A stretch of 40,232 nucleotides of DNA, taken from contig CANROJ010000017.1 of NCBI GenBank assembly GCA_947632215.1, forward strand, positions 1 through 40,232. Direction: 5' to 3'. Position numbers and translations under genes: made by a program. This document shows, piece by piece, positions 23,808 through 37,724 of this stretch. The stretch's first letter is position 1, and the number at the start of each line of letters is the position of its first letter. The DNA comes from an uncultured Flavobacterium sp. GTDB taxonomy: Bacteria > Bacteroidota > Bacteroidia > Flavobacteriales > Flavobacteriaceae. Below the pieces are notes generated by a model. The model did no database searches. It worked only from the letters and a program-made list of their open reading frames with translations, and had not been told where the DNA came from.

Positions 23808-25322
23808 TTAACCTACATTGGTGTTGAGTAAAGAAACTTCAAAGGCCTTCCACCCCCACTGTTGCCTTTTTTTATTAAAAACCATAAAAGCTTTATAGGT
23901 TATAGCAGATTCGTTAGTAATATAATTATTTGCTAAGAGCTCTTGAGAAAAGTACACATCTCCAATAAAACCAAGTCCGTTAGCTAAAATTCGAATTACA
24001 CCATGACCTGATTTGATCGCTTCACAGCTTTGCTGGGTACTTCTTTCAACGGTATTTGCTAGATAAAAACCGTTATCTCCCTCTTTTTGTAATCGAACAT
24101 CTAAAATCTCGCCAATTTTGGGATTCTTTATAAAAGTATCATATTTAAAAAAACCACTAAAGTTCTTATTTTTTATAAAATGAAGTAGCTTCTTGTCGTA
24201 ATGTACATATTCTACCACTACTACATCAACTGGGATATCTTGATAAAGAAGTTTTTCGGCTATACCTTTATAGCGTTTATATAATATATAATTATTATCG
24301 GAGCCTCTAACCATTGTATACCAAGGTTGGTTCATCCAATATTTAACCTTTTGTGGTGTATTAAGAGATTGGCTATGATATACTTTTAATAAATGCTGAA
24401 TCTCAGTTCTAGCCTCTACATACATTTTACTTTCTATAAGTAAATCACAAAAATCTTGTCTGACTCTAAGCAAAAATTCATCCTTAGCTCCCAATGAAAG
24501 GGCCTTACAATAACAAGCAAAAGCGTAAGGAGCATTATCATTATAGATATTGGCTAGTAACTCCCATACCCAAAAATTGTTAGCCTTGCTTCTTGCAAAA
24601 GGTAACACAGCTTCTAATGCCTTTGTGTTTTGGCCTAATTCTAAGAGAATCTTAGCCTTATAGTAGGCAGGATATACGTAATTGGGATACTGCTCAATTA
24701 GCTTTGTTAAACGAATATTAAACTCCTGTAATCTATGTTTTCTATTGTCTATTTCTATTATTGAATCTTTATTGAGTAAAGACTTAGCGTAATTAATATA
24801 TATCTTCTCAACAATTGACATGCCTTTATTTCCATTGATGTGGCTCTCTACATAATCTTGGGCTTCAAAACTATCTAAAGTACACCAATCCATTACTTCC
24901 AAATAATTATTATACTTGAGAAAACCATGATGTAATGTACGTATTAAAAGACTAAAAGTCTCGCTAGGCCTTGTAAAGCACAAGGGTTTAATTAAGTTAA
25001 AAAGTTGATCGGCTACTATAAAGTTCCACTTATTTTTAGATATTAGATTATCCACTAAGCTCCTAATAGGCCATGCTAAAGAATCAATTAATAGATTAGG
25101 TTTTTTAGGTAATTCTAAATCAGAGATATTTGCTAAAACTTCTATAAAAGCATCAAAATCTATTTCAAGGGCATGTCGTTTTAAATAATCATAATAAACC
25201 CAACCCAAGGACAATTTCTCTTCCATATCCTCTGGGTTTAATTGCAAATTTTGCTTGGCTAATACAAAAGCTTCTTCTAGCTTACCTTGCTTACGAAGCA
25301 CTAGTACAGGATTACTTATCAT
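23808..25322 (-). CDS. TPR protein with C-terminal S1/CSD-like domain
   Basis: A 504-residue protein with no signal peptide. Residues 1-330 contain TPR-like helical repeats (for example GKLEEAFVLAKQNLQLNPED at the start, and LGQNTKALEAVLPFARSKANN later). Residues about 434-497 look like a small OB/S1 or cold-shock domain (GHGVIRILANGLGFIGDVYF and a tail QQWGWKAFEV). This TPR-plus-S1 layout recalls the TPR-S1 proteins described with tellurium-resistance and TOTE-type conflict systems, but none of the usual partners (Ter proteins, primase, helicase-nuclease) is nearby. It stands between a decayed gene and a mobilization module, so it may be accessory. The function is unknown. Confidence 0.6.
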   Translation of the reverse strand: MISNPVLVLRKQGKLEEAFVLAKQNLQLNPEDMEEKLSLGWVYYDYLKRHALEIDFDAFIEVLANISDLELPKKPNLLIDSLAWPIRSLVDNLISKNKWNFIVADQLFNLIKPLCFTRPSETFSLLIRTLHHGFLKYNNYLEVMDWCTLDSFEAQDYVESHINGNKGMSIVEKIYINYAKSLLNKDSIIEIDNRKHRLQEFNIRLTKLIEQYPNYVYPAYYKAKILLELGQNTKALEAVLPFARSKANNFWVWELLANIYNDNAPYAFACYCKALSLGAKDEFLLRVRQDFCDLLIESKMYVEARTEIQHLLKVYHSQSLNTPQKVKYWMNQPWYTMVRGSDNNYILYKRYKGIAEKLLYQDIPVDVVVVEYVHYDKKLLHFIKNKNFSGFFKYDTFIKNPKIGEILDVRLQKEGDNGFYLANTVERSTQQSCEAIKSGHGVIRILANGLGFIGDVYFSQELLANNYITNESAITYKAFMVFNKKRQQWGWKAFEVSLLNTNVG

Positions 25323-26346: not shown

Positions 26347-27876
26347 ATGACAGATTTAATAGTATATGAAAAGTCTGAGCTTTCTCATATAATAATCTTA
26401 TGCAGAAAGGATAACAAACAAGCCTTGGCCTTATCCCATATTGATATAATGGGCAATCTACAAGGCGTACCAATTATACCCTCGAACTATGTGAAATTCC
26501 TTAAAGTTCACAACCAAATACGACCATTTTTAAACTTTTTCGCGATTTTCGTCAGTAAAGCAGTGGACAAAGAGCAGTATTCTTTCTATAAGATACCTAT
26601 ACATTACTTAGTGCATCTATACATCAGTATGTCAAAAGAGAGCACTGCAAATAATCTATTACACTACTTAGAGAAAATACCACAAAAGTACCTTGTTGTA
26701 CAAAGAGAGCCCTTAACTAGTAAGAGTCCAACTTACAAGGTAGTTAGGTTAGGCAAATCTAGAAAGGTAACTAGAACCAAAAAAGCTAAAAATAAAAAAA
26801 AAGCAACTTTACAAACTACCACTTCAAATACTCTTAACCAGAGTACTTTAAATTATAATAAAGAATATTTTACTAACTGGCAAACAATTGAACCTATGAA
26901 AATCCAAGCATCCAATCAGTCTTATAATCAAGACAAAAAGAACAATACAGCTAAAAAAGCAACATCTAAAGAGACCGCTAATCAAAAATCCGATCCTGTT
27001 AAAAACACACCCAAACAAGACACACAACAACATAAAGCTTCTTTAGATAAACAGGACAAAGTAAAATCCTTTATTATTAAAGAAAGTCAAGTAAATTGGG
27101 GTCTCTTAGATGAGCTAGGAGTAAGTAAACAAAGATTGATAAATTCTAATCAATTAGAACTTTTATTAAAAGGATTAAAGACAAAATATCTATATTGGAT
27201 AAAATATCGAACGCACAACTTATTATTTAAATTCGAGGCTAGAATCAGTTTTCGTCACAATCAAGATGGTCTAATCACTATTGTATTACATGGAATCAAT
27301 AAAGAGCCGGCCTTACATCTACCTTTCTTTGATCATAATTTCACTGAACAGGATAAAACAAACTTACTACACACTGGAAACATGGGAAGAGTGGCTATTT
27401 TGACAAATAAATTTTCTCAAGAAAAGATTCCTTCACTAATAAGCATCGATAAGTTAACAAACGAAATTATTGCAATCGATCAGGAAAAGGTAAAAGTACC
27501 AGAAGTATTTAAAGGCGTTAATCTTTCTTTAGAACAGCAAGAAGATCTAAGACAAGGCAAGAAAATCTTTCTACAGGGTCTGCAGTCCAATAAAGGAACC
27601 ATATTTGATGCGCATGTACAATATAATGCTGACAGGCGATTTTTGGACTTTTTCTTTACTAACAACCCTGATCAAACTCCAATTACTTTTACAACTTTAG
27701 GTGTTCCTACTACATTTCGTGGAATAACCTTTACAGAAGAACAAATCATTGAACTAGAGAGTGGACACTGGGTGTACTTAGATAATCTAGTTGGCAAAAA
27801 AGCCAATACCTATAAAGGTTATGTTTTATTTAATGAGCAAACAAAATCTTTAGATTTCTTCTTTGAAAGACCCTAG
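26347..27876 (+). CDS. DUF4099/DUF3945-type mobile-element protein
   Basis: A protein of about 509 residues of the kind found in Bacteroidota conjugative and mobilizable elements. Residues 1-125 are a unique N-terminal part. Residues 135-240 are low-complexity and rich in Lys, Gln and Thr (disordered linker). At about 245-370 lies a DUF4099-like region (VNWGLLDELGVSKQRLINSN). Two tandem DUF3945-like repeats follow at about 383-437 (FKGVNLSLEQQEDLRQGKKI) and 446-505 (FRGITFTEEQIIELESGHWV), each ending in DFFF. In many elements this set is attached to a type IA topoisomerase or its partner; no topoisomerase part is present here. ATG at 26347 is preferred over an upstream TTG at 26299. The stop is UAG. 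It converges on the coupling-protein gene. Confidence 0.75.
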   Translation: MTDLIVYEKSELSHIIILCRKDNKQALALSHIDIMGNLQGVPIIPSNYVKFLKVHNQIRPFLNFFAIFVSKAVDKEQYSFYKIPIHYLVHLYISMSKESTANNLLHYLEKIPQKYLVVQREPLTSKSPTYKVVRLGKSRKVTRTKKAKNKKKATLQTTTSNTLNQSTLNYNKEYFTNWQTIEPMKIQASNQSYNQDKKNNTAKKATSKETANQKSDPVKNTPKQDTQQHKASLDKQDKVKSFIIKESQVNWGLLDELGVSKQRLINSNQLELLLKGLKTKYLYWIKYRTHNLLFKFEARISFRHNQDGLITIVLHGINKEPALHLPFFDHNFTEQDKTNLLHTGNMGRVAILTNKFSQEKIPSLISIDKLTNEIIAIDQEKVKVPEVFKGVNLSLEQQEDLRQGKKIFLQGLQSNKGTIFDAHVQYNADRRFLDFFFTNNPDQTPITFTTLGVPTTFRGITFTEEQIIELESGHWVYLDNLVGKKANTYKGYVLFNEQTKSLDFFFERP

Positions 27877-27952: not shown

Positions 27953-29881
27953 TTATTTATGACTCATTAATTCGCGTTGAACTAAGTCATGTATTTGTAT
28001 TTTTATATCTCTAAAATTCTTTTCAACATAATACTCCAAAGGTAAAGCAGTACTTAATAATTTGCCTGAATTGGTAAAGGGCAAAGTAATTTGTTCCACT
28101 TGGCTATCCATACTTGCATCGGCATGAAGTTTTGCATGAAACACTGGTTGATCTAAACTAACTCCTACTGTTTGAGTTAAACAACCAACAAAAAATCCTT
28201 GCGATAGTTGGCTAATCTTTGCACTTGGAATAAGAGCGTCTAACTGGGTTGAAATTGAATTAGAAATGTCTTGAGTATTACTACTATACCCTTGTCTTGT
28301 CTGCAGAATTCTTCCAAATCTCTCGCTAAGTAATTTGGCTGTCTCTCCTAGTACTTGACCACTAATAATATTACCTATAGTATTGAAAACAACTCTACTT
28401 TGCCTTTCACCATAATCTCTTACTAATTGAGAAAAATCTTGTAGAATTAAACAAGTTGCTATCCTATTACTTCTGGCAGTAGCAATAAAGTGATCTAAAC
28501 CATGTACAAAAACCGTAGGCAGTTCATCTATAATTAGCGCCAAATCATGTTGCTTCTTTTTATTTACCAGCTTCATCACCCTACTAATATACAGACCAAT
28601 GGCAGCTCCATAGATTTGTTGTCTTTGTGGATTATTACCAATACATACAACCTTTGGGTGTCGTGGATTATTTAAATCCAAAGTAAAATCATTACCACTT
28701 AATACCCAGTACATATTCTTAGAGACTAACCTAGATAAAGGAATCTTCAAAGAAGCCAATTGTCCCTGCAATTGATCTTGTGCCCCACCTTGTAAAGCGT
28801 CTTGAAAAGCGGAGAGATAATTTCTTAACTCTAGGTGATTACTTAAAAGAGTAAGCAGCTCCTTATAGGGTTGATTAATTAACTCTATAACATGAGGCAG
28901 AGTACAATATTTACCGTTTTGATAAAGTTTCAAGTACCATATTACAGCGCTAAGTAATAGAATTGGTGATTCCACAAAAAAATCTCCTTGTTTTTGTATC
29001 CAAGATCTATTCAGATTTAGCATTAAGCAACTCGCAGCTTCATAGGCATCTAAAATACTTTCTAAATGTTGTGGATGTAAAGCATTACAACGATGAGAAT
29101 ACCTGAGATCATCGAAATTTATCACATAAAATCCCAATTGTTTACTCTTTGGGTTTTTATATTTATTCATGGCATGATAGCTCAACTTAGTTAAGTCGTT
29201 AAACTTAAAGTCATAAATTAACATAGCATATCCTTTACCAATAAATTGCCTAATAAAACTATGTACGATTGTATAGCTCTTTCCCGATCCCGGGGTTCCT
29301 AATACTAGGGTACCACGAAAAGGGTTTAAGAGATTAATTCACCCATCTCGACACTTATTCTTACAGTAAAATTTCATCCTCAAATGCAGGGAATCTTTGG
29401 TTACAACCTTTTTTGTCTGTTGATAAAAACTCTCATTTTTGACATTAAAATAATCAAAGCTATCTTCCATAATATTAAATCTCTTTAAACCCAGCCCGCT
29501 ACAGCCCATTAGAAGATATCCAATACAAGTACTTATTACAACATAGGAGCTATAGGAGCTGTTTTGAACCATAGGGATAAAGTCGCTCCAAAACACAAGT
29601 ATTACAGCCACTAATAAGCCATAAAAGCCTTTTAATCTAGCATTGGAAAGCTCCAATCGAACCGGAGAAGCCCATATACTCAACACTAAAAAAAGCAAAC
29701 TTAGAATCTTTAAATGATAAATACTCTGGGCTTGCAAGACCCTGGTGGTAGTTCAAAATCCAAATACAGGAGTATCTATAAAATTAGACGCCCAAAAATA
29801 GCTAACTAATAAAAGCACACTTATACTTAGAAAAAAGTACCAAATACCCTGTGGGGATGTGGTGGTTTTAAATTTATTCAT
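27953..29881 (-). CDS. MobC/TraG-type conjugative coupling protein, with two in-frame UGA codons
   Basis: Read as one frame, this is a full-length (642-residue) VirD4/TraG-type ATPase that links the relaxase-DNA complex to a type IV secretion channel. ATG at 29881 starts an N-terminal membrane part (helices near residues 13-35 and 60-110). Walker A GTPGSGKS is at 195-202, Walker B near LALIIDELP, and the C-terminus is TraG-like with a Q-rich ATPase end. Two UGA codons interrupt it, codon 43 (29753-29755) and codon 181 (29339-29341). The second reads RDG-[UGA]-INLLNPFRG, where relatives, as I remember them, carry Trp. No other stop and no frameshift occurs. Under the standard code only fragments can be made, the longest intact one (27953-29224) lacking Walker A. 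It is last in a mobA-mobB-mobC order, 36 bases after the relaxase gene. Confidence 0.8.
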
Positions 29882-29917: not shown

Positions 29918-31153
29918 CTAATCTCTAGAGCTCAATGCCATGATTTGCCTGTGATGGATTTCTCTTTGCTCTTTATCAACTTGTTGATCTAAGCCAAAAG
30001 AATTGCCTAAGGTATCCCCATTTAAACCATCCCAGCTTACTTGTAAAATACTGGCTGGATTTCTGTCATTTTGCTGCTTATAGAAATTATCAAGAAGAAT
30101 CTTTTGAGGAATTTCCAAATAAGCTAAGTAATTCATTTGGTTCAATAACTTGTGAGAACTAGTCTGTAAAGATTCTATAGGCACAACAATTTTAGGCTCA
30201 AACTCTAGTACATAATTATAACTCGGGCTTTGTTTGGCTGGATACAATAAACTCATACCTAAGTCTTTTAAAACAACCCGGCAATTTGCTAGATCATCAA
30301 CCTTTTGTAAATGATGCAATAAATAATCACTTAACTTGTCAATGTCTATAACTCTACGCATTGTATTATTAGTCAAACTAAACTTAGTCTGTATCTGCTC
30401 AAAGCTAAATTCAGCACTGAATAAGTCCTGATTTAATCCATTACCAACAAACTGTTTATCGCCATCTAAAGCGTAAAAAATAAAATAGTTTTGGCTTGGA
30501 CTTCCCAAGGGTATATGAGTAGTAAATCCAACCCCTAAATGAGCTAATAGGTCACTATAGGTGTAGAGATCTCCATAAACAAAATTGTTATTAACGGCTT
30601 GCAATGCTTTGGATATATGCTGTTTTATATCACCAAAAGTATAGCGAATAGGACTAATACGCTTTGAAAACCCCGGCTTATTTCATCTAGGTAAGCCAAG
30701 TAAGTTAAATTCTTTACTTACCTCTTGAGCTACTTCTGTTAATTTAAAAGAATCCATGATTTGTGTCTGATTCTTATCAAAGACACTTTGGTTACATCCA
30801 ATAATGTGGAAGTGAACCCTTGAAATATCAAAGTGTTTAAATACAACATAAGGCTGATGAGTATAACCTAGAGTATCCATAAATTTTTTGATTATCTCTA
30901 TACTTTGCCAATCCAAAATAGCGTCCGTGGGAGAAGGACTTAGGGAGATGTGGAAGGCATTTTTTTTGTCGTTTTCACCTAGATTTAGGTAGAAATTTAT
31001 TCACTGATTTGCAGTTTGCAAAGTAGTTTCTACTTGCTTTTGACCACCAAATTGATTGGTATATAAGATACTTGCTTGCGCTGCATTTTGCTTCTCGAAA
31101 TGATATTTAAGTGAACTAAATATACATTGACTGTAAGAAATGTTAGTTATCAT
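29918..31153 (-). CDS. MobB-type relaxase, with two in-frame UGA codons
   Basis: Read as one frame, a 411-residue relaxase that nicks oriT and stays bound to the transferred strand. The N-terminus (MITNISYSQC onwards) supplies the family's first motif, and the metal-binding motif is visible as KHFDISRVHFHII, with two histidines spaced H-x-H. The later part, ISPIRYTFGDIKQHISKALQAV, matches the relaxase helical region. UGA interrupts it at codon 51 (31001-31003; NQ-[UGA]-INFY) and codon 157 (30683-30685; LPR-[UGA]-NKPG). Everything else is open, with no UAA, UAG or frameshift. Its ATG overlaps the end of the MobA-like gene by 11 bases, so the two are coupled. As above, it is either readable through UGA or inactivated by two nonsense changes. 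Confidence 0.78.
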
Positions 31154-31655
31154 AATTAGAATCTTTAATGGGATAATGTGATTTGAAATCTTGAATTAAC
31201 ACCACAACCTCTTTGGATATCTTTGCCAAATCTTTGGTGTAAACTTGTAATGTTCCGAGCATTTCTGTGTTCTGTTGTATTAGCGATTCTCTTTGGACTA
31301 TTAATTCAGAATAACTACTAGCAATGGAGTGAAGATCTTGATAAAAACTATTCAAACGCATGTAGAAGGCTAATTTTTCTTTTTCCTTATCTTTTACATA
31401 TTCTTTTGTCTGTTGCTCCGGACTTACTTTTTTTACAGAGCTACTTATAGTAGTTCTGGGTTTACCTTGAATGGTCATCAAGACTTTCTCTTTAATAAAA
31501 GCATCGTAATTCTCATGCTTACTCTCGTTGTATAAGCGCTTAAATCTCCTGTATTGCTTCTTGCTTAAGAACATGGACAATCTCTTTTTGTTCCTTGGTT
31601 CCATCTGGGATTTTAAAGGTAATTCATAGGTTTTTGTTTTGTTTGTTTGGTCCAT
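31143..31655 (-). CDS. MobA-like relaxosome accessory protein
   Basis: A 170-residue, strongly basic protein in the place where Bacteroidota elements carry MobA, a DNA-binding helper that loads the relaxase on oriT. Residues 15-60 (NKKRLSMFLSKKQYRRFKRL) fit a ribbon-helix-helix-like DNA-binding part. Residues about 85-150 form a coiled coil (QDLHSIASSYSELIVQRESL). It is intact and has no UGA or Trp codon. Upstream lie an inverted repeat (31660-31672) and the likely oriT. It overlaps the relaxase start by 11 bases, giving the order mobA, mobB, mobC. Confidence 0.7.
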   Translation of the reverse strand: MDQTNKTKTYELPLKSQMEPRNKKRLSMFLSKKQYRRFKRLYNESKHENYDAFIKEKVLMTIQGKPRTTISSSVKKVSPEQQTKEYVKDKEKEKLAFYMRLNSFYQDLHSIASSYSELIVQRESLIQQNTEMLGTLQVYTKDLAKISKEVVVLIQDFKSHYPIKDSNYDN

Positions 31656-31924: not shown

Positions 31925-33325
31925 TCAATGGCCTCCTAAGGCGCGATAAAGCTCCACTTGGTTAACCAAATAATCTCTTTGTAAACCTACAAAATTCAAA
32001 TCCGCATCTAAGGCTAATCCTTGTGCACTAATAACCTCTAGATAAGTGGCCTTATCCATCTCGAACATAAACTTAGTATTGTTTAAAGATTCATTTAAAA
32101 TATTTACTCGTTCTTGCATCAAGACAGACTTGTCTTTGACCTTTTCGATCTTTACTAGAGTATTATGCACATCGGTGAATCCGCCAATTACAGCTGCTTT
32201 AAATGCAATAGCAGCTTTTTCTCTCTCTACCTTTGCTACTTCAAAAGCAGTTCTAAGTTTCTTTTTATTGAAAATAGGTTGAAAAATTCCACCACCTATC
32301 ATACCAAACAAAGATCCTGGGGTATTAAACCAAGAAGATCCTTCAATGGCATTTAATCCTCCTTGAGCAGACAACACCAAATTAGGATACATCTGTCCCT
32401 GGGCAGCACCCACTTTAGCATTTGCTCTTTTTAATTCAAACTCTGCCACTTGAATATCGGGTCTTTGACTAACAAAATCAGCCGGAACACCGCTATTAAA
32501 ACTAGTTGCTAATTGCAATGTCTTTAACGAAGAGTTACGTTCTATTTTTTGAGGATAGTGATTTAACAATAAATTTAATGCACTTTCCTGCAGGGCAATC
32601 TCGGTTTGAATATCTGTTAAAACCTCTTTAGATTCTATCCACTGGGCTTGGGATTGTTGCACAGCCAAAATACTTGTATTTCCAACCTCAAATAACTTTT
32701 GAGTAACCGCATAGGTATTATATCTCAATTCAATACTAGCCTGAGCGATCTGCATTTGAGCATCTAACATCAAAAGATTGATGTATACGGTTGCAACTTG
32801 TGAAATTAGCTGGTTTTGTATAGCATTTCGCACCTCATTGGTTTGTAAATAAGTAGCTAAAGCAGCTTCTTTCTCACGGCGAATCTTTCCCCAAATATCT
32901 ACTTCCCAAGCGAAATCTAAACTAGCCATAAAATCGTTGTTAGTTCTTTGTGCACCACTTAATCCAACGGCTGAATTCTTAGAAGCCTCACTTCTAGAAG
33001 CATTTACATTTAAGCCTAAATCAGGTAAGATAGCTAATCTACTTTGGTTGTATAACAATTGAGTTTGCTCGATATTTTTCACCGCAGTTAACAAATCTGG
33101 ATTTTGCTCTAAAGCAAGACCAATTAACTTTTGTAACTCTGTATCATTGAAAAATTCTTGCCAAGTAACTTTGCTCAACTCATTTACCTCTGGGGAACTT
33201 TGTTGATTATCAACAAAGTTCGCAGGTAAATCTTGCTCGGGTCTTTCATAGTTCTGCCCCACTTTACAAGCGGTTAATAAACCACTGGCAACTACGATAT
33301 AAATTATTTTTTTCATTTTTTTCAT
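31925..33325 (-). CDS. Outer-membrane efflux channel (OprM/NodT type lipoprotein)
   Basis: The outer-membrane factor of a tripartite RND pump, 466 residues. A lipoprotein signal ends at LLTAC, with the lipid-bearing C20. Two OEP repeats follow, with DIWGKIRREKEAALATY in the first, VSQRPDIQVAEFELKRANAKVGAAQG at the start of the second (quoted in parts: SQRPDIQVAEFELKRAN) and QMYPNLVLSAQGG. The C-terminus reads LYRALGGH and then stops at UGA (31925-31927). In this family the end is often ALGGGW. Here UGA followed by TTT TAA would give ALGGH-W-F if UGA were Trp. It is third in the adaptor-pump-channel operon (29 bases after the pump). Confidence 0.92.
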   Translation of the reverse strand: MKKMKKIIYIVVASGLLTACKVGQNYERPEQDLPANFVDNQQSSPEVNELSKVTWQEFFNDTELQKLIGLALEQNPDLLTAVKNIEQTQLLYNQSRLAILPDLGLNVNASRSEASKNSAVGLSGAQRTNNDFMASLDFAWEVDIWGKIRREKEAALATYLQTNEVRNAIQNQLISQVATVYINLLMLDAQMQIAQASIELRYNTYAVTQKLFEVGNTSILAVQQSQAQWIESKEVLTDIQTEIALQESALNLLLNHYPQKIERNSSLKTLQLATSFNSGVPADFVSQRPDIQVAEFELKRANAKVGAAQGQMYPNLVLSAQGGLNAIEGSSWFNTPGSLFGMIGGGIFQPIFNKKKLRTAFEVAKVEREKAAIAFKAAVIGGFTDVHNTLVKIEKVKDKSVLMQERVNILNESLNNTKFMFEMDKATYLEVISAQGLALDADLNFVGLQRDYLVNQVELYRALGGH

Positions 33326-33354
33326 TTATAAATTTTCATTCCACCAACCATCTA

Positions 33355-36300
33355 CTACTCTTGATCACTTGCTGGCTTATAACCAGAGATCTTTTCTTGT
33401 AAATATTGGAAGAAAACGTATAACACAGGAATAATAAATACACCAAAGACAACTCCAAAGATCATTCCTCCAGCTGTACCGATACTAATGGAGTGATTAC
33501 CTTGTGCGGAAGATCCCACTACAGTCATCAAAGGAATTAAACCAGCCACAAAGGCAAAGGATGTCATAAGAATTGGGCGTAATCTCAGTTTTGAAGCCTC
33601 AATGGCAGATTCTACAATACTATAACCTTGGGCTCTTCGTTGTACGGCAAACTCAATAATTAAAATAGCATTCTTGGCCAAAAGACCAACAAGCATAATA
33701 AGTCCTACTTGTACATATATATTATTTGCTATTCCTACCAAACCAATAGCCACAAATACTCCCATCACCCCCACTGGAAGCGATAATAAGACGGCTAAAG
33801 GCAAGATGTAACTCTCGTATTGTGCTGCCAAAATAAAGTATACAAACAAAATAGAAAGACCAAAGATAAAGGCCATTTGTCCACCACTTTTCTTTTCTTC
33901 TTGACTTAGTCCTAACCATTCAATAGAGTATCCATCAGGTAACTTTTCCTGTGCAATTTGCTCTACTGTAGCCATGGCATCTCCGGTACTTGTACCAGGA
34001 TTAATAATACCATTTACTGTAATGGAGTTAAATAAGTTATGTCTACTAATAGCCTGTGGTCCGTAGGTCTTTTCTAATTTAGCTAATGAACTAATAGGAA
34101 TCATTTCTCCTGAACCAGATAATACGTATACAGAATCAAAGGAAGCTTCATCTGCTCTATAAGGAGCATCTCCTTGAACAAATACCTTAAACTGTTTTCC
34201 AAAACGGTTGAAGTCATTTACTTGTGCACTACCGTAGAATAATTGAATAGCACTCATGATATCTCTTACTTCTACCCCGTGCATTTTTGCCTTAACTGGA
34301 TCCACATCAATACGGTACATTGGGAAGTCTGCTTTAAACATAGTAAAGGCTGCCTGTACCTCATCGGAAGAACTCAAATCAACGTTAAACTGATTTACTA
34401 CATCTGCAAAATCAGTAATACTACCTCCTTTTCTATCTTGTACAACTAATTCTAATCCGTCGAAGTCTCCAAAACCAGGAACCGTTGGATTAGCGAACAT
34501 ATAGAAATCTCCTTCTTTAATTTGTGAAAGCTCCGCATTAATATTGGCAATAAGAGTATTAATCTCTACCACCTCACCTCTTTGATCCATATCTTTGAAG
34601 CTAACAAATCCCATTGCATACGCTGGAGAAGCTGCATTTCCAAGGATATTAAAACCTGAAATTGTAGTAACTGCTTTAACAGCTGGATTTTCTCTAATGA
34701 TTCTATCCCCTTCTTTTAATACCTCTGTAGTTCTATCGATGGATGATCCCGGAGGTAAAGACAAGGCGAACATCGCGAATCCCTGGTCTTCATTAGGTAT
34801 AAACCCTTTAGGAGTTCCATTCATCAGTAATATCATTCCCACCACAGAGGCGATAATAATACATAGACTAGTGAACTTTCTTTTAATTAAGAACTGAACC
34901 CCTTTACCATAACGGTCAGTTAATGCGGTGAAAGCCGCATTAAAAGAGCGGAAGAAACGCTTTAAAAGCCCTAGTTTTTTCTCTGGAGTTTTCTCTAAAT
35001 CATTATGGTGATTCTTTAACATCAAAGCACATAAGGCTGGTGATAAAGTAAGGGCGTTTACCGCAGAAATTAAAATAGCAATGGCCAGAGTAAAGGCAAA
35101 CTGCTGATAGAATACCCCAACAGGTCCTGTCATAAAACCAACGGGTAAGAACACGGCTGACATTACCAAGGAAATCGATATAATAGCCCCGGTGATTTCT
35201 CCCATGGCCTTATTTGTTGCTTGTGGGGCATCTAAGCCTTCGTGTTCCATGGTACTATGCACGGCCTCGACCACAACAATGGCATCATCGACCACAATTC
35301 CAATGGCCAGTACCAAAGCAAACAAGGTTAACATATTAATAGAGAAACCAATCAAATCTAAGAAGAAGAAGGTTCCAATTAGGGATACCGGTACTGCTAT
35401 GGCTGGAATCAAAGTAGATCTAAAGTCTTGCAGGAACACATATACTATAATAAACACTAAGATAAAGGCCTCTAATAAAGTATAAACAACTTGATTAATT
35501 GACTCATCTAATTGGGTTTTATTAGCAAAGGTCACATTGTAACGCAAACCAACAGGTAAATCAGGTGTTAGTTCTTCTAATACTTGATATACCTCAGTTT
35601 GAATGGCATTAGCATTAGATCCATTAGTTTGGAACACGGCCATAGTAACGGCTTGTTTTCCATTAATTCTATTATCTTCATCATAGGACACAGAACCGAA
35701 TTCAATTCTGGCTACATCTTTTAAATAAAGTACATTTCCAGCTTTATCGGCTTGCACAACAATTTGCTCAAACTGCTCTGGAGTGTTGTATTTCCCTGAA
35801 TAAGTTAAGGTATACTGCACACTTCCACCAGCATTTTGTCCAAGGTTACCTGCGGCAACCTCCATACTTTGATTTTGAATTGCTGCTTGAATATCGGAAG
35901 GAGTTAAACCTCTACTAGCCAATTTATGTGGGTCTAGCCACACACGCATAGCATAATCTTTCTCTCCGAAAATTTGAACGTTCCCAACTCCTTTAATACG
36001 CTTTAAGGCACGAACTAAATTAATACGGGCATAGTTCTGTACGAAGGTCTCATCATATAGGGTCTCATCATCAGAGATAAGGTCAACTACCATGATCATA
36101 CCACGTTGCTCTTTTTGGGTAATTACCCCAGCTTGAATTACCTCTTCAGGTAAAATCCCCTGTACTTGAGCAACTCTGTTTTGTACGTTTACCGATGCTT
36201 GATCGGGATCGGTACCCAATTCAAAGAATACCGTAATCATGGCCGTACCATCGTTACTTGCGGTAGATTCAATGTGGGTCATGTTTTCCACCCCATTTAC

Positions 36301-36504
36301 TACCTCTTCAATAGGAGTAACAACTGCTTTTAATACAGTCTCGGCGTTACCCCCTGGATAAGAAGCCTGAATAACCACACTTGGAGGTGCAATGTCTGGG
36401 AACTGTGCCATAGGTAGTTGGGTTAATCCAACTAATCCCAAAATCACAAGAATGACAGATATTACCGTGGCTAATACAGGTCTATGTATAATCTTTTTTA
36501 ACAT
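33355..36504 (-). CDS. RND multidrug efflux pump, HAE-1 (AcrB-like) family
   Basis: The inner-membrane, proton-driven pump of a tripartite drug exporter, 1049 residues, the usual AcrB length. The N-terminus is MLKKIIHRPVLATVISVILV, with PMAQFPDIAPPSVVIQASYPG following. The proton-relay helix carries LALVLAIGIVVDDAIVVVEAV (in part: AIGIVVDDAIVVVEAV). GFIPNEDQGFAMFALSLPPG marks the second half, and LIMLVGLLAKNAILIIEFA is TM11. HAE-1 is preferred over metal pumps because of the DD pair and the AQFPDI segment. It lies between the adaptor and the channel and is transcribed with them. The stop is UAG. Confidence 0.96.
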   Translation of the reverse strand: MLKKIIHRPVLATVISVILVILGLVGLTQLPMAQFPDIAPPSVVIQASYPGGNAETVLKAVVTPIEEVVNGVENMTHIESTASNDGTAMITVFFELGTDPDQASVNVQNRVAQVQGILPEEVIQAGVITQKEQRGMIMVVDLISDDETLYDETFVQNYARINLVRALKRIKGVGNVQIFGEKDYAMRVWLDPHKLASRGLTPSDIQAAIQNQSMEVAAGNLGQNAGGSVQYTLTYSGKYNTPEQFEQIVVQADKAGNVLYLKDVARIEFGSVSYDEDNRINGKQAVTMAVFQTNGSNANAIQTEVYQVLEELTPDLPVGLRYNVTFANKTQLDESINQVVYTLLEAFILVFIIVYVFLQDFRSTLIPAIAVPVSLIGTFFFLDLIGFSINMLTLFALVLAIGIVVDDAIVVVEAVHSTMEHEGLDAPQATNKAMGEITGAIISISLVMSAVFLPVGFMTGPVGVFYQQFAFTLAIAILISAVNALTLSPALCALMLKNHHNDLEKTPEKKLGLLKRFFRSFNAAFTALTDRYGKGVQFLIKRKFTSLCIIIASVVGMILLMNGTPKGFIPNEDQGFAMFALSLPPGSSIDRTTEVLKEGDRIIRENPAVKAVTTISGFNILGNAASPAYAMGFVSFKDMDQRGEVVEINTLIANINAELSQIKEGDFYMFANPTVPGFGDFDGLELVVQDRKGGSITDFADVVNQFNVDLSSSDEVQAAFTMFKADFPMYRIDVDPVKAKMHGVEVRDIMSAIQLFYGSAQVNDFNRFGKQFKVFVQGDAPYRADEASFDSVYVLSGSGEMIPISSLAKLEKTYGPQAISRHNLFNSITVNGIINPGTSTGDAMATVEQIAQEKLPDGYSIEWLGLSQEEKKSGGQMAFIFGLSILFVYFILAAQYESYILPLAVLLSLPVGVMGVFVAIGLVGIANNIYVQVGLIMLVGLLAKNAILIIEFAVQRRAQGYSIVESAIEASKLRLRPILMTSFAFVAGLIPLMTVVGSSAQGNHSISIGTAGGMIFGVVFGVFIIPVLYVFFQYLQEKISGYKPASDQE

Positions 36505-36593
36505 TTCAACTGTTTTATTATTTTAAACTATCTGTTCTACCAAAAGTATACTACTACTTTTGTGTAGTTCGATTATCTATTTACTTTACTTAA

Positions 36594-37724
36594 TTAAGAC
36601 TCTAAAGGGGTTACCGGCATTTGATCTTTTAATTTATCTGCTCCAGTAACAACCAAGGTTTCTCCTGGTTCTACTCCACTTTCAATAAAATAGGTATGTA
36701 AGTTTTTTCCAGTAATTTTAAGCTGTCTTTGTTCTACTGTATTATCTGGAGTTAATACAAAGGCAAATATCTTATCTTGTAAATCCACCGTTGCAGCAAT
36801 AGGAATTTGAGTTATATCCTTTTGTACACTTACTAGCTCAACTGTACCAGTTCCTCCATTACGAAGTAATCTATTTGGATTATCAAATACAGCTCTGACA
36901 CTAATAGCGTTGGTTTGTTTGTTAAACTCACCGTTAATTACATCTACTTTACCTTTAATTGGGTAAGTATCTCCGTTGCTAAGTACTAAATCCACAGGCA
37001 TGGTTAAAATGTTATCTGCACCTTGATTTTCTTTAACTAAATCCAGGTAGTTACTTTCCGATAAAGAGAAATAGGCATAGATCTGATTAATATCCGACAA
37101 AGTAGTTAATGGTTCCATATCGCTAGGCGACACTAAGCTTCCAACTCTTTGGGTAATTAGTCCCAAAAATCCATCCACTGGAGCTGTAATAGAACAATAG
37201 CTCAAATTTAACTCTGCATCAGCTAAAGCAGCCTTAGCTTGTAAAACACCAGCTTGAGCGGTTTGAAAATCTGCTTGAGCAGTTTGAAGTTGTATTGGAG
37301 AAACAAAAGAATTTTCTAATAAAGAAGCTACTTTATCTTGCTCTAATTGAGCATTTAGCAAAATAGATTCTGCTGCTTTTAAAGCTGCCTTAGCATTATT
37401 TACTTTAATTAGATAAGGCTGGTTGTCAATGCGCATAATCACTTGACCTTTCTTCACGTAACTTCCCTCTTCTATATCAATGCTACTAACATATCCTGAA
37501 ACCTTAGGCATAATCTGCACATTTACCTTTCCACTTAAAGAGGCAGTATAGGTGTTTACGATATTTGCGTCTTGTTTCTCTATCTTGGCTACCTTAACTT
37601 CTAAAGCTGGACCTTGTTGCATTGCTGATTGTTCATTATTGTCATTACAACTCACAAGTAAAACTGAACTTGTCAAGAACCCTGCTAAAAATAAAAATCT
37701 AGTTGTTCTAAAAATTTTCTTCAT
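36594..37724 (-). CDS. Periplasmic adaptor (membrane fusion protein) of the RND pump
   Basis: A 376-residue lipoprotein that joins pump and channel. The signal ends LVSC, with C26 the lipid site. The beta-barrel, lipoyl and hairpin parts follow: VQIMPKVSGYVSSIDIEEGSYVKKGQVIMRID is the first lipoyl half (conserved part PKVSGYV and EGSYVKKGQ), a coiled-coil hairpin runs through about 105-165, and LSYCSITAPVDGFLG is the second half. The C-terminus is a barrel and proximal domain. It is first in the operon (89 bases before the pump). A TAnnTTTG-like -7 is not certain. The two-component system just upstream is separated by a terminator. Confidence 0.94.
   Translation of the reverse strand: MKKIFRTTRFLFLAGFLTSSVLLVSCNDNNEQSAMQQGPALEVKVAKIEKQDANIVNTYTASLSGKVNVQIMPKVSGYVSSIDIEEGSYVKKGQVIMRIDNQPYLIKVNNAKAALKAAESILLNAQLEQDKVASLLENSFVSPIQLQTAQADFQTAQAGVLQAKAALADAELNLSYCSITAPVDGFLGLITQRVGSLVSPSDMEPLTTLSDINQIYAYFSLSESNYLDLVKENQGADNILTMPVDLVLSNGDTYPIKGKVDVINGEFNKQTNAISVRAVFDNPNRLLRNGGTGTVELVSVQKDITQIPIAATVDLQDKIFAFVLTPDNTVEQRQLKITGKNLHTYFIESGVEPGETLVVTGADKLKDQMPVTPLES

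What the first reader, a model, noticed from the sequence alone, without database searches (positions are those of the whole stretch)
27953..29881. Coupling-protein gene intact except for two UGA codons, one at a conserved Trp position
Seen: the minus-strand frame from ATG 29881 to UAA 27953 gives a normal-length MobC/TraG protein with only two interruptions, both UGA (codons 43 and 181), both in the same frame, with no indel, UAA or UAG. Codon 181 lies in RDG-[UGA]-INLLNPFRG, just before Walker A. From memory, relatives read xGWINxxNPFRG or SWINIINPFRG here, so UGA stands where Trp belongs. Inference: UGA is read as Trp, or Trp codons were changed by G-to-A mutation.
Basis: partly seen in the sequence, partly recalled or inferred. 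Interest (0 to 1): 0.85.

Follow-up and report, generated by a model that had tools for sequence, protein, structure and literature searches.

The report
UGA-only breaks in DNA-transfer genes
Two neighbouring DNA-transfer genes of a flavobacterium are interrupted by UGA stop codons and by no other break, and the single tryptophan tRNA found in that genome has a shortened stem predicted to let it misread UGA, so the genes may still be made whole at a low level, although ordinary gene decay remains nearly as likely.

Summary
The MobC/TraG frame (29881-27953, minus) has UGA at codons 43 and 181 and no other break. The relaxase gene directly upstream (31153-29918, minus) also has exactly two in-frame UGAs (codons 51, 157) and no other break. 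Codon 181 lies at a Trp column (W in 112 of 116 homologues); the other three lie at variable, polar columns. UGA is not reassigned genome-wide: RF2 is intact and keeps its UGA frameshift site, UGA ends 30 of 1017 sampled ORFs, and host codons aligned to a relative's Trp read UGG 411 times and UGA once. Four of four nonsense codons being UGA has probability 0.0003-0.004 under single-step mutation, uncorrected for the finding having been picked for its UGAs. All four are followed by A. The only tRNA-Trp found has a C27.U43 mismatch (4-bp anticodon stem) plus A24 and A59; an overexpressed 4-bp tRNA-Trp is reported to raise UGA readthrough in E. coli. Committed reading: the host likely reads UGA as Trp part of the time, so UGA lesions are tolerated in these weakly selected genes (0.45). 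Plain pseudogene decay is nearly as likely (0.42). G-to-A hypermutation is not supported.

The parts
27953..29881 (-). mobC/traG-type coupling protein gene, 642 codons, interrupted by two in-frame UGA
   Evidence: Pfam TraG-D_C, T4SS-DNA_transf and TrwB_AAD_bind over their cut-offs on the piece behind codon 181
29753..29755 (-). in-frame UGA, codon 43 of mobC; next base A; homologues polar (Q/N/D/E in 114 of 116)
29339..29341 (-). in-frame UGA, codon 181 of mobC; next base A; W in 112 of 116 homologues; just before Walker A
29918..31153 (-). MOB relaxase gene, 411 codons, interrupted by two in-frame UGA
   Evidence: PF03432 Relaxase 57.4 bits against cut-off 24.6 on the middle piece
31001..31003 (-). 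in-frame UGA, codon 51 of the relaxase; next base A; homologues Ser in 9 of 12
30683..30685 (-). in-frame UGA, codon 157 of the relaxase; next base A; homologues Lys or Arg in 10 of 12
31143..31655 (-). first gene of the mob operon (MobC_2/RHH-like accessory protein), intact, overlaps the relaxase start
   Evidence: PF19514 41.1 bits against cut-off 27.5; no UGG and no UGA
26347..27876 (+). DUF4099/DUF3945 gene next to the mob operon, intact
   Evidence: 4 UGG and 0 UGA

Best explanation
The relaxase and coupling-protein genes are each full length and carry two in-frame UGA codons and no other break, and the only tryptophan tRNA found in the host likely reads these UGA codons as tryptophan part of the time. 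Shown: the four UGAs, the absence of other breaks, the A after each, the intact RF2, and a single detected tRNA-Trp(CCA) whose top anticodon-stem pair is a C27.U43 mismatch, with A24 and A59. Reported by others: an overexpressed 4-bp-stem tRNA-Trp raises UGA readthrough in E. coli. Inferred: in this host UGA-A is leaky, so a UGA lesion lowers the yield of full-length protein instead of abolishing it. UGA changes could then persist in low-level, weakly selected mobilization genes, while UAA, UAG and frameshift changes, which would abolish the protein, were removed. The code as a whole stays standard, because RF2 still ends translation at UGA elsewhere.
For: 4 UGA, 0 UAA, 0 UAG, 0 frameshift over 1053 codons; probability of all four being UGA under single-step mutation 0.0003-0.004. 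As a comparison, 3 of the 40 MobC rows have stops inside: 2 UAA and 1 UAG, no UGA. All four UGAs are followed by A: p = 0.013 by base composition, 0.021 against UGG in the same genes (A after 2 of 9), 0.0045 against UGA at ORF ends (A after 6 of 30). Host tRNA-Trp (G000:C48:11468-11539) has C27.U43, A24, A59; the Rfam alignment flags this one stem pair as non-standard; a pyrimidine-27/U43 form matches in 3 of 398 genomes of the genus, the host included. PMC13092985 (abstract and sections 6, 17, 18, 20 read; other parts as passages): overexpressed C27A 4-bp tRNA-Trp raised UGA readthrough about 2.5-fold in E. coli; it cites in vitro work in which C27A was essential to a C27A/G24A/G59A triple mutant; genomes with only the 4-bp form use UGA stops less in 13 of 19 orders. 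Among 107 MobC columns invariant in 22 relatives the window protein differs at 14, one of them the UGA and most of the rest conservative. The truncated ORFs are each listed as one sequence on 8 and 7 contigs, and no near-identical longer protein is among the hits listed.
Against: Three of the four UGAs lie at polar columns in relatives, against 1 of 9 UGG-coded Trp of the same genes (p = 0.052). No other in-frame UGA appeared in the relative-protein alignments, about 91,000-93,000 codons of 1.45 Mb; host codons aligned to a relative's Trp are UGG 411 times and UGA once. RF2 is intact and UGA ends genes. Ordinary pseudogenes exist here: an nhaC copy on contig C4 has a frameshift and a UGA at a Ser/Ile/Val/Thr column. 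4-bp tRNA-Trp is common: 7 of the 11 order-level tRNA-Trp loci have a mismatched 27:43, and about 6.5% of standard-code genomes have only that form. The same paper notes that C27A alone gave no UGA readthrough in vitro. Low UGA stop use is not specific to it: G012 1 of 57 with a G.U pair, G026 1 of 53. UGA ends do not clearly avoid A: 6 of 30 against 283 of 796 for UAA, two-sided p = 0.12. A24 puts the tRNA outside that paper's 'Blastocrithidia-like' class. The window protein departs from otherwise invariant MobC columns more than its nearest intact relative P0054 does (23 against 14 of 121). The finding was picked because all its stops are UGA.
Confidence: 0.45

Rival explanations
1. The mob operon is an ordinary decaying remnant of a mobile element: four nonsense changes arose under relaxed selection and happen all to be UGA; nothing full length is made.
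For: I recognised no integrase or further transfer genes by eye among the ORFs (only 11 of the window's proteins or pieces were run against Pfam); three UGAs at non-Trp columns; in the alignments UGA is confined to these two genes and the nhaC pseudogene shows that decay in this genome can create UGA; broken MobC copies occur in relatives too (3 of 40 rows).
Against: No frameshift, although four nonsense changes imply about 46-98 neutral point changes under the models; 4 of 4 UGA at 0.0003-0.004; invariant columns mostly kept or changed conservatively; A after each UGA.
Confidence: 0.42
2. The genes came recently from a donor whose code reads UGA as Trp and have not been adjusted.
For: The relaxase has no close relative in what was searched (identities up to 33% over part of it).
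Against: GC at codon positions is within about 1.1 sd of the host mean; the MobC relatives listed are Bacteroidota with a standard code as far as named; 9 UGG remain beside the 4 UGA.
Confidence: 0.04
3. Strand-biased G-to-A hypermutation, for example a TC-specific cytosine deaminase, produced UGA in UGGA contexts.
For: All four UGAs are followed by A, the context such an enzyme would give; in the relaxase alone A-ending codons are somewhat commoner before A than elsewhere (0.765 against 0.639; host difference 0.043, sd 0.082).
Against: A-ending codons before A: 0.730 in the two genes together against a host mean of 0.792 (sd 0.081); GA dinucleotide ratio 0.93 and 0.92 against 1.00 (sd 0.11), so no gene-wide G-to-A excess; two UGGA codons remain.
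Confidence: 0.03
4. Sequencing or assembly error.
For: Draft genome of 101 contigs.
Against: The two truncated ORFs are listed as one sequence each on 8 and 7 contigs, although these may include the window's own contig and re-assemblies of the same sample; four independent errors all giving UGA are unlikely.
Confidence: 0.02

Closest known systems
4-bp anticodon-stem tRNA-Trp(CCA) reading UGA (Blastocrithidia nonstop, Condylostoma magnum, Ca. Zinderia insecticola, bacterium XS4; PMC13092985)
   Same: Single CCA tRNA-Trp with the top anticodon-stem pair open, here C.U as in the Blastocrithidia tRNA; no UCA tRNA found; in-frame UGA in genes
   Different: Here RF2 is intact, UGA still ends genes, in-frame UGA in aligned genes is confined to two mobilization genes and an nhaC pseudogene, and the tRNA also carries A24
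Hirsh-type UGA suppressor tRNA-Trp of E. coli (G24A)
   Same: A24 paired with U11
   Different: A24 is the state at all 18 tRNA-Trp loci of other genus members read, not a mutation peculiar to this host
MobB/MobC mobilization modules of Bacteroidota
   Same: Gene order accessory protein, relaxase, TraG/VirD4-like coupling protein; Pfam domains; mobA/mobB annotations under plasmid matches
   Different: Relaxase is remote from all those found (about 20-33% identity) and both main genes carry UGA
UGA=Trp genetic code (NCBI table 4)
   Same: UGA in frame, one of four at a conserved Trp column
   Different: RF2 present, UGA used as stop, no genome-wide UGA at Trp columns

Membership tests
TraG/VirD4-type coupling protein (MobC) | T4SS coupling-protein domains | tested here: met
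   PF12696 48.8 bits, PF02534 45.5, PF10412 40.3, all over cut-off
TraG/VirD4-type coupling protein (MobC) | uninterrupted reading frame | tested here: not met
   two in-frame UGA
MOB relaxase (PF03432) | relaxase nuclease domain | tested here: met
   57.4 bits on the middle piece, cut-off 24.6; aligns with 12 homologues
MOB relaxase (PF03432) | uninterrupted reading frame | tested here: not met
   two in-frame UGA; own row reads '2 TGA', the other printed rows 'none'
UGA=Trp reassigned code | release factor 2 lost | tested here: not met
   prfB 464.6 bits, cut-off 370, no stop inside; sequence and CTTTGAC frameshift site
UGA=Trp reassigned code | UGA not used to end genes | tested here: not met
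   30 of 1017 ORFs of 150 codons or more end in UGA; a few of these ORFs may be spurious
UGA=Trp reassigned code | UGA at many conserved Trp positions | tested here: not met
   host codons aligned to a Trp of a relative: UGG 411, UGA 1; one search printed UGG 420 and no count for UGA
UGA=Trp reassigned code | tRNA-Trp with UCA anticodon | tested here: inconclusive
   none among the tRNAs read at the 59 places, but only 150 of 274 candidates were scored and the genome is a draft
4-bp anticodon-stem tRNA-Trp | top anticodon-stem pair (27:43) unpaired | tested here: met
   C27.U43
4-bp anticodon-stem tRNA-Trp, 'Blastocrithidia-like' subclass | lacks A9C and G24A | tested here: not met
   A24 present; class definition read
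UGA readthrough by this tRNA-Trp | Trp inserted at UGA in the host | not testable with these tools
   needs proteomics or a reporter
ordinary pseudogene | frameshift, deletion, UAA or UAG besides UGA | tested here: not met
   none seen in either gene

The most novel reading that the evidence does not exclude
A standard-code bacterium caught at an early, ambiguous stage of UGA-to-Trp reassignment: a short-stem tRNA-Trp makes UGA-A a part-time Trp codon while RF2 is still present, and mobilization genes are the first genes to have taken up UGA as a sense codon.
Probability: 0.15. Interest if true: 0.85.

Novelty: new variant of a known kind. Interest (0 to 1): 0.5.

Why it matters
Short-stem tRNA-Trp is reported as widespread in bacteria with a standard code, and the authors leave open what it does at native levels (section 20 of PMC13092985). 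A natural operon interrupted only by UGA in a host where just this tRNA-Trp was found would be a direct place to ask that, and would show how a stop codon can drift towards a sense codon without loss of RF2. If the genes are simply dead, the case warns that 'UGA only, one at a Trp column' is weak evidence for recoding.

Tried and rejected
Genome-wide UGA=Trp code: rejected on RF2, UGA stops and Trp columns. A suppressor tRNA in the window: no tRNA at all. Structured RNA in the window: no Rfam match at gathering thresholds. G-to-A hypermutation: no gene-wide signal. In-frame UGA as a shared trait of this relaxase family: the search has matches in 164 of 398 genomes, and among its printed rows only the window's own has stops inside (more matches were not printed). 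Low UGA stop use as a fingerprint of the short-stem tRNA: not specific (G012 1 of 57 with a G.U pair; G026 1 of 53, its tRNA-Trp not read but not matching the pattern; G238 4 of 70 and G107 8 of 144 with C.U; G001 9 of 55, G002 5 of 54, G006 7 of 51). In-frame UGA in G238 and G107: none in 18,836 and 26,739 aligned codons. A hexamer scan for UGA-split genes was swamped by antisense shadows; its stricter form lists 17 UGA rows: the 4 mob codons, the nhaC copy, and 12 others. Three of those 12 score positively on both sides; one looks like a gene junction, one is overlapped by open frames on the other strand, and one stays unexplained (L172, 51 and 66 codons). The rest were not followed up. Free-energy folds of the tRNAs did not give a cloverleaf; the Rfam alignment was used instead. 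The invariance test used too narrow a set of homologues and that held wrongly picked ORFs; one search replaced both, dropping 8 of 30 homologues (three wrong ORFs, four second copies of loci already in the set, one cautiously). The stricter filter kept only 2 of the 4 mob UGAs, beside 2 UAA and 1 UAG elsewhere in the host. For the relaxase columns 12 homologues were used, all that BLAST found at E below 1e-10 in the ORFs of the 16 loci. Other strains of the species were not fetched (metagenome scans capped at 0).

Full report
What is there. The minus frame 29881..27953 encodes a 642-codon MobC/TraG-type coupling protein interrupted only by UGA at codons 43 and 181. Directly upstream, overlapping the stop of a small accessory gene, lies a relaxase gene of 411 codons (31153..29918) with UGA at codons 51 and 157 and no other interruption. 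Pfam confirms both families on the separate pieces. Together: four UGA, no UAA, no UAG and no frameshift in 1053 codons. Of the 26 genes tabulated, the other 24 have no internal stop (most by construction, as open frames) and two of them end in UGA.

Columns. In 116 MobC homologues column 181 is W in 112; column 43 is Q, N, D or E in 114. In 12 relaxase homologues (about 24-29% identity) column 51 is Ser in 9 and column 157 Lys in 8 or Arg in 2. The nine UGG-coded Trp codons of these genes align to W columns in 4 cases, to other hydrophobic columns in 4 and to an acidic one in 1. So the Trp-column argument holds for one UGA of four, and the excess of polar columns among UGAs (3 of 4 against 1 of 9, p = 0.052) speaks mildly against Trp at the other three. 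The Trp column is also a weak discriminator, because decay by transition makes UGA mostly from Trp codons (codon counts).

Chance. Under single-step mutation of the codons present, the probability that four nonsense codons are all UGA is 0.0043 (uniform), 0.002 (ts/tv 4), 0.0011 (GC>AT bias) or 0.00028 (GC>AT transitions only), and four nonsense changes would go with about 46-98 neutral point changes. No frameshift, and mostly conservative change at invariant columns (14 of 107 differ, one of them the UGA), do not fit long neutral decay well. Against this, the window protein differs at 23 of 121 columns invariant in the other relatives, the intact nearest relative P0054 at 14. In one search, 3 of 40 MobC rows in other places have stops inside: 2 UAA, 1 UAG, no UGA. 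The scan reached this locus because its stops are UGA, so the probabilities overstate the case.

The host's code. The genome (2.34 Mb, 101 contigs, 99.38% complete) has an intact RF2 with an SD-like stretch and a CTTTGAC frameshift site and an intact RF1. In 1.45 Mb of stretches, 797 ORFs of at least 150 codons end in UAA, 190 in UAG and 30 in UGA. Aligning proteins of relatives to these stretches covered 93,361 codons or, in a second set-up, 90,722. met 4 UGA (all in the mob genes), 5 UAA and 1 UAG in frame; four of the six UAA/UAG cases look like gene junctions. The stricter filter kept 2 UGA (both mob), 2 UAA and 1 UAG. Host codons aligned to a Trp of at least one relative were UGG 411 times and UGA once. 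A scan without homologues led to one more broken gene with UGA, an nhaC copy on contig C4 with an upstream frameshift and a UGA at a column that is Ser 12, Ile 9, Val 2, Thr 1 in 24 homologues, beside an uninterrupted paralogous frame on C22. Ordinary pseudogenes therefore exist here, and UGA is not confined to Trp sites.

The tRNA. RF00005 places in the genome number 59, with 150 of 274 candidates scored. Among the tRNAs read there is one tRNA-Trp, anticodon CCA, and no UCA tRNA; a direct DNA search finds the same single tRNA-Trp. Its 27:43 pair is C.U, and the Rfam alignment marks this one stem pair as non-standard. At 18 tRNA-Trp loci of 16 other genus members the pair is G.U, with A24 and A59 as in the host. 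A pyrimidine-27/U43 form matches in 3 of 398 genus genomes, the host included. At order level an open 27:43 is common: of 11 loci, 7 are mismatched (C.U 1, U.U 1, G.A 5), 2 G.U and 2 Watson-Crick. The 2026 survey PMC13092985 (abstract, sections 6, 17, 18 and 20 read; introduction, section 19, section 21 and discussion as passages) reports that 4-bp tRNA-Trp is the only form in about 6.5% of standard-code genomes, that such genomes use UGA stops less in 13 of 19 orders, and that an overexpressed C27A variant raised UGA readthrough about 2.5-fold in E. coli. It cites in vitro work in which C27A alone gave no UGA readthrough but was essential to the function of a C27A/G24A/G59A triple mutant. The host tRNA resembles that triple state (open 27:43, A24, A59). 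That resemblance is mine and untested.

Context. Each of the four UGAs is followed by A. By base composition this has probability 0.013; against UGG in the same genes (A after 2 of 9) p = 0.021; against UGA at ORF ends (A after 6 of 30) p = 0.0045 (counts, tests). UGA ends themselves do not clearly avoid A: 6 of 30 against 283 of 796 for UAA (two-sided p = 0.12) and 52 of 152 UGA ends in relatives (p = 0.14); a smaller first sample had shown 2 of 21. A deaminase acting in a TC context would give the same pattern, but the two genes together show no G-to-A excess.

Distribution. The truncated ORFs are listed as one sequence each on 8 (MobC piece) and 7 (relaxase piece) contigs, and no near-identical longer protein is among the hits listed (one search lists 120 of 7997), which argues against sequencing error. 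The relaxase has no close relative in what was searched. Among named hits the highest MobC identity is Myroides sp. LJL119, 59-60%. The neighbouring operon upstream is an RND-type efflux system by Pfam.

Verdict. I commit, at 0.45, to leaky UGA decoding that lets UGA lesions persist in weakly selected mobilization genes. Every step after the tRNA's sequence is inference. Plain decay follows at 0.42. What holds me back: the three polar columns, the absence of UGA in other aligned genes, the intact RF2, the commonness of short-stem tRNA-Trp, and the way the finding was selected. Literature searches in the held library listed no paper whose title or abstract start deals with UGA-interrupted mobilization genes in a standard-code bacterium; that is a statement about those searches only.

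Noticed in passing
L320:8104-9588 (G000:C4:48104-49588), minus: nhaC-type antiporter pseudogene (PF03553): frameshift near residue 45 and an in-frame UGA at a Ser/Ile column; an uninterrupted paralogous frame lies on contig C22 (the row for C22 reads '1 TAG', which shows only as the end of the frame).
   Followed up: yes
L001 (G000:C22:21163-22182): prfB keeps an RF2-type programmed frameshift site (AGGAGG ... CTTTGAC), so UGA should still act as a slow stop there.
   Followed up: partly
window 31925-37724, minus: RND-type efflux operon (outer-membrane efflux protein, AcrB-family pump, HlyD-type adaptor) directly upstream of the mob operon; the outer-membrane gene ends in UGA.
   Followed up: partly
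window 23808-25322, minus: Gene with DUF7017 and two S1/CSD-like domains of TOTE conflict systems next to the mobile remnant.
   Followed up: no
L087 and L040 (G000:C26): A distant coupling-protein-like gene (26-30% identity in two pieces, 581-codon open frame) with other large ORFs around it, possibly a separate conjugative element.
   Followed up: no
L290 (G238), L291 (G107): Two other genus members have the C27.U43 tRNA-Trp with a different neighbouring stem sequence; UGA ends 4 of 70 and 8 of 144 of their sampled ORFs.
   Followed up: partly
L352 (G055): An nhaC homologue in another genome of the order is listed with one TGA inside the match.
   Followed up: no
L172:10408-10761, plus: Two short open frames (51 and 66 codons) in one frame separated by UGA, both with positive coding score and no competing long frame; identity unknown.
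   Followed up: partly
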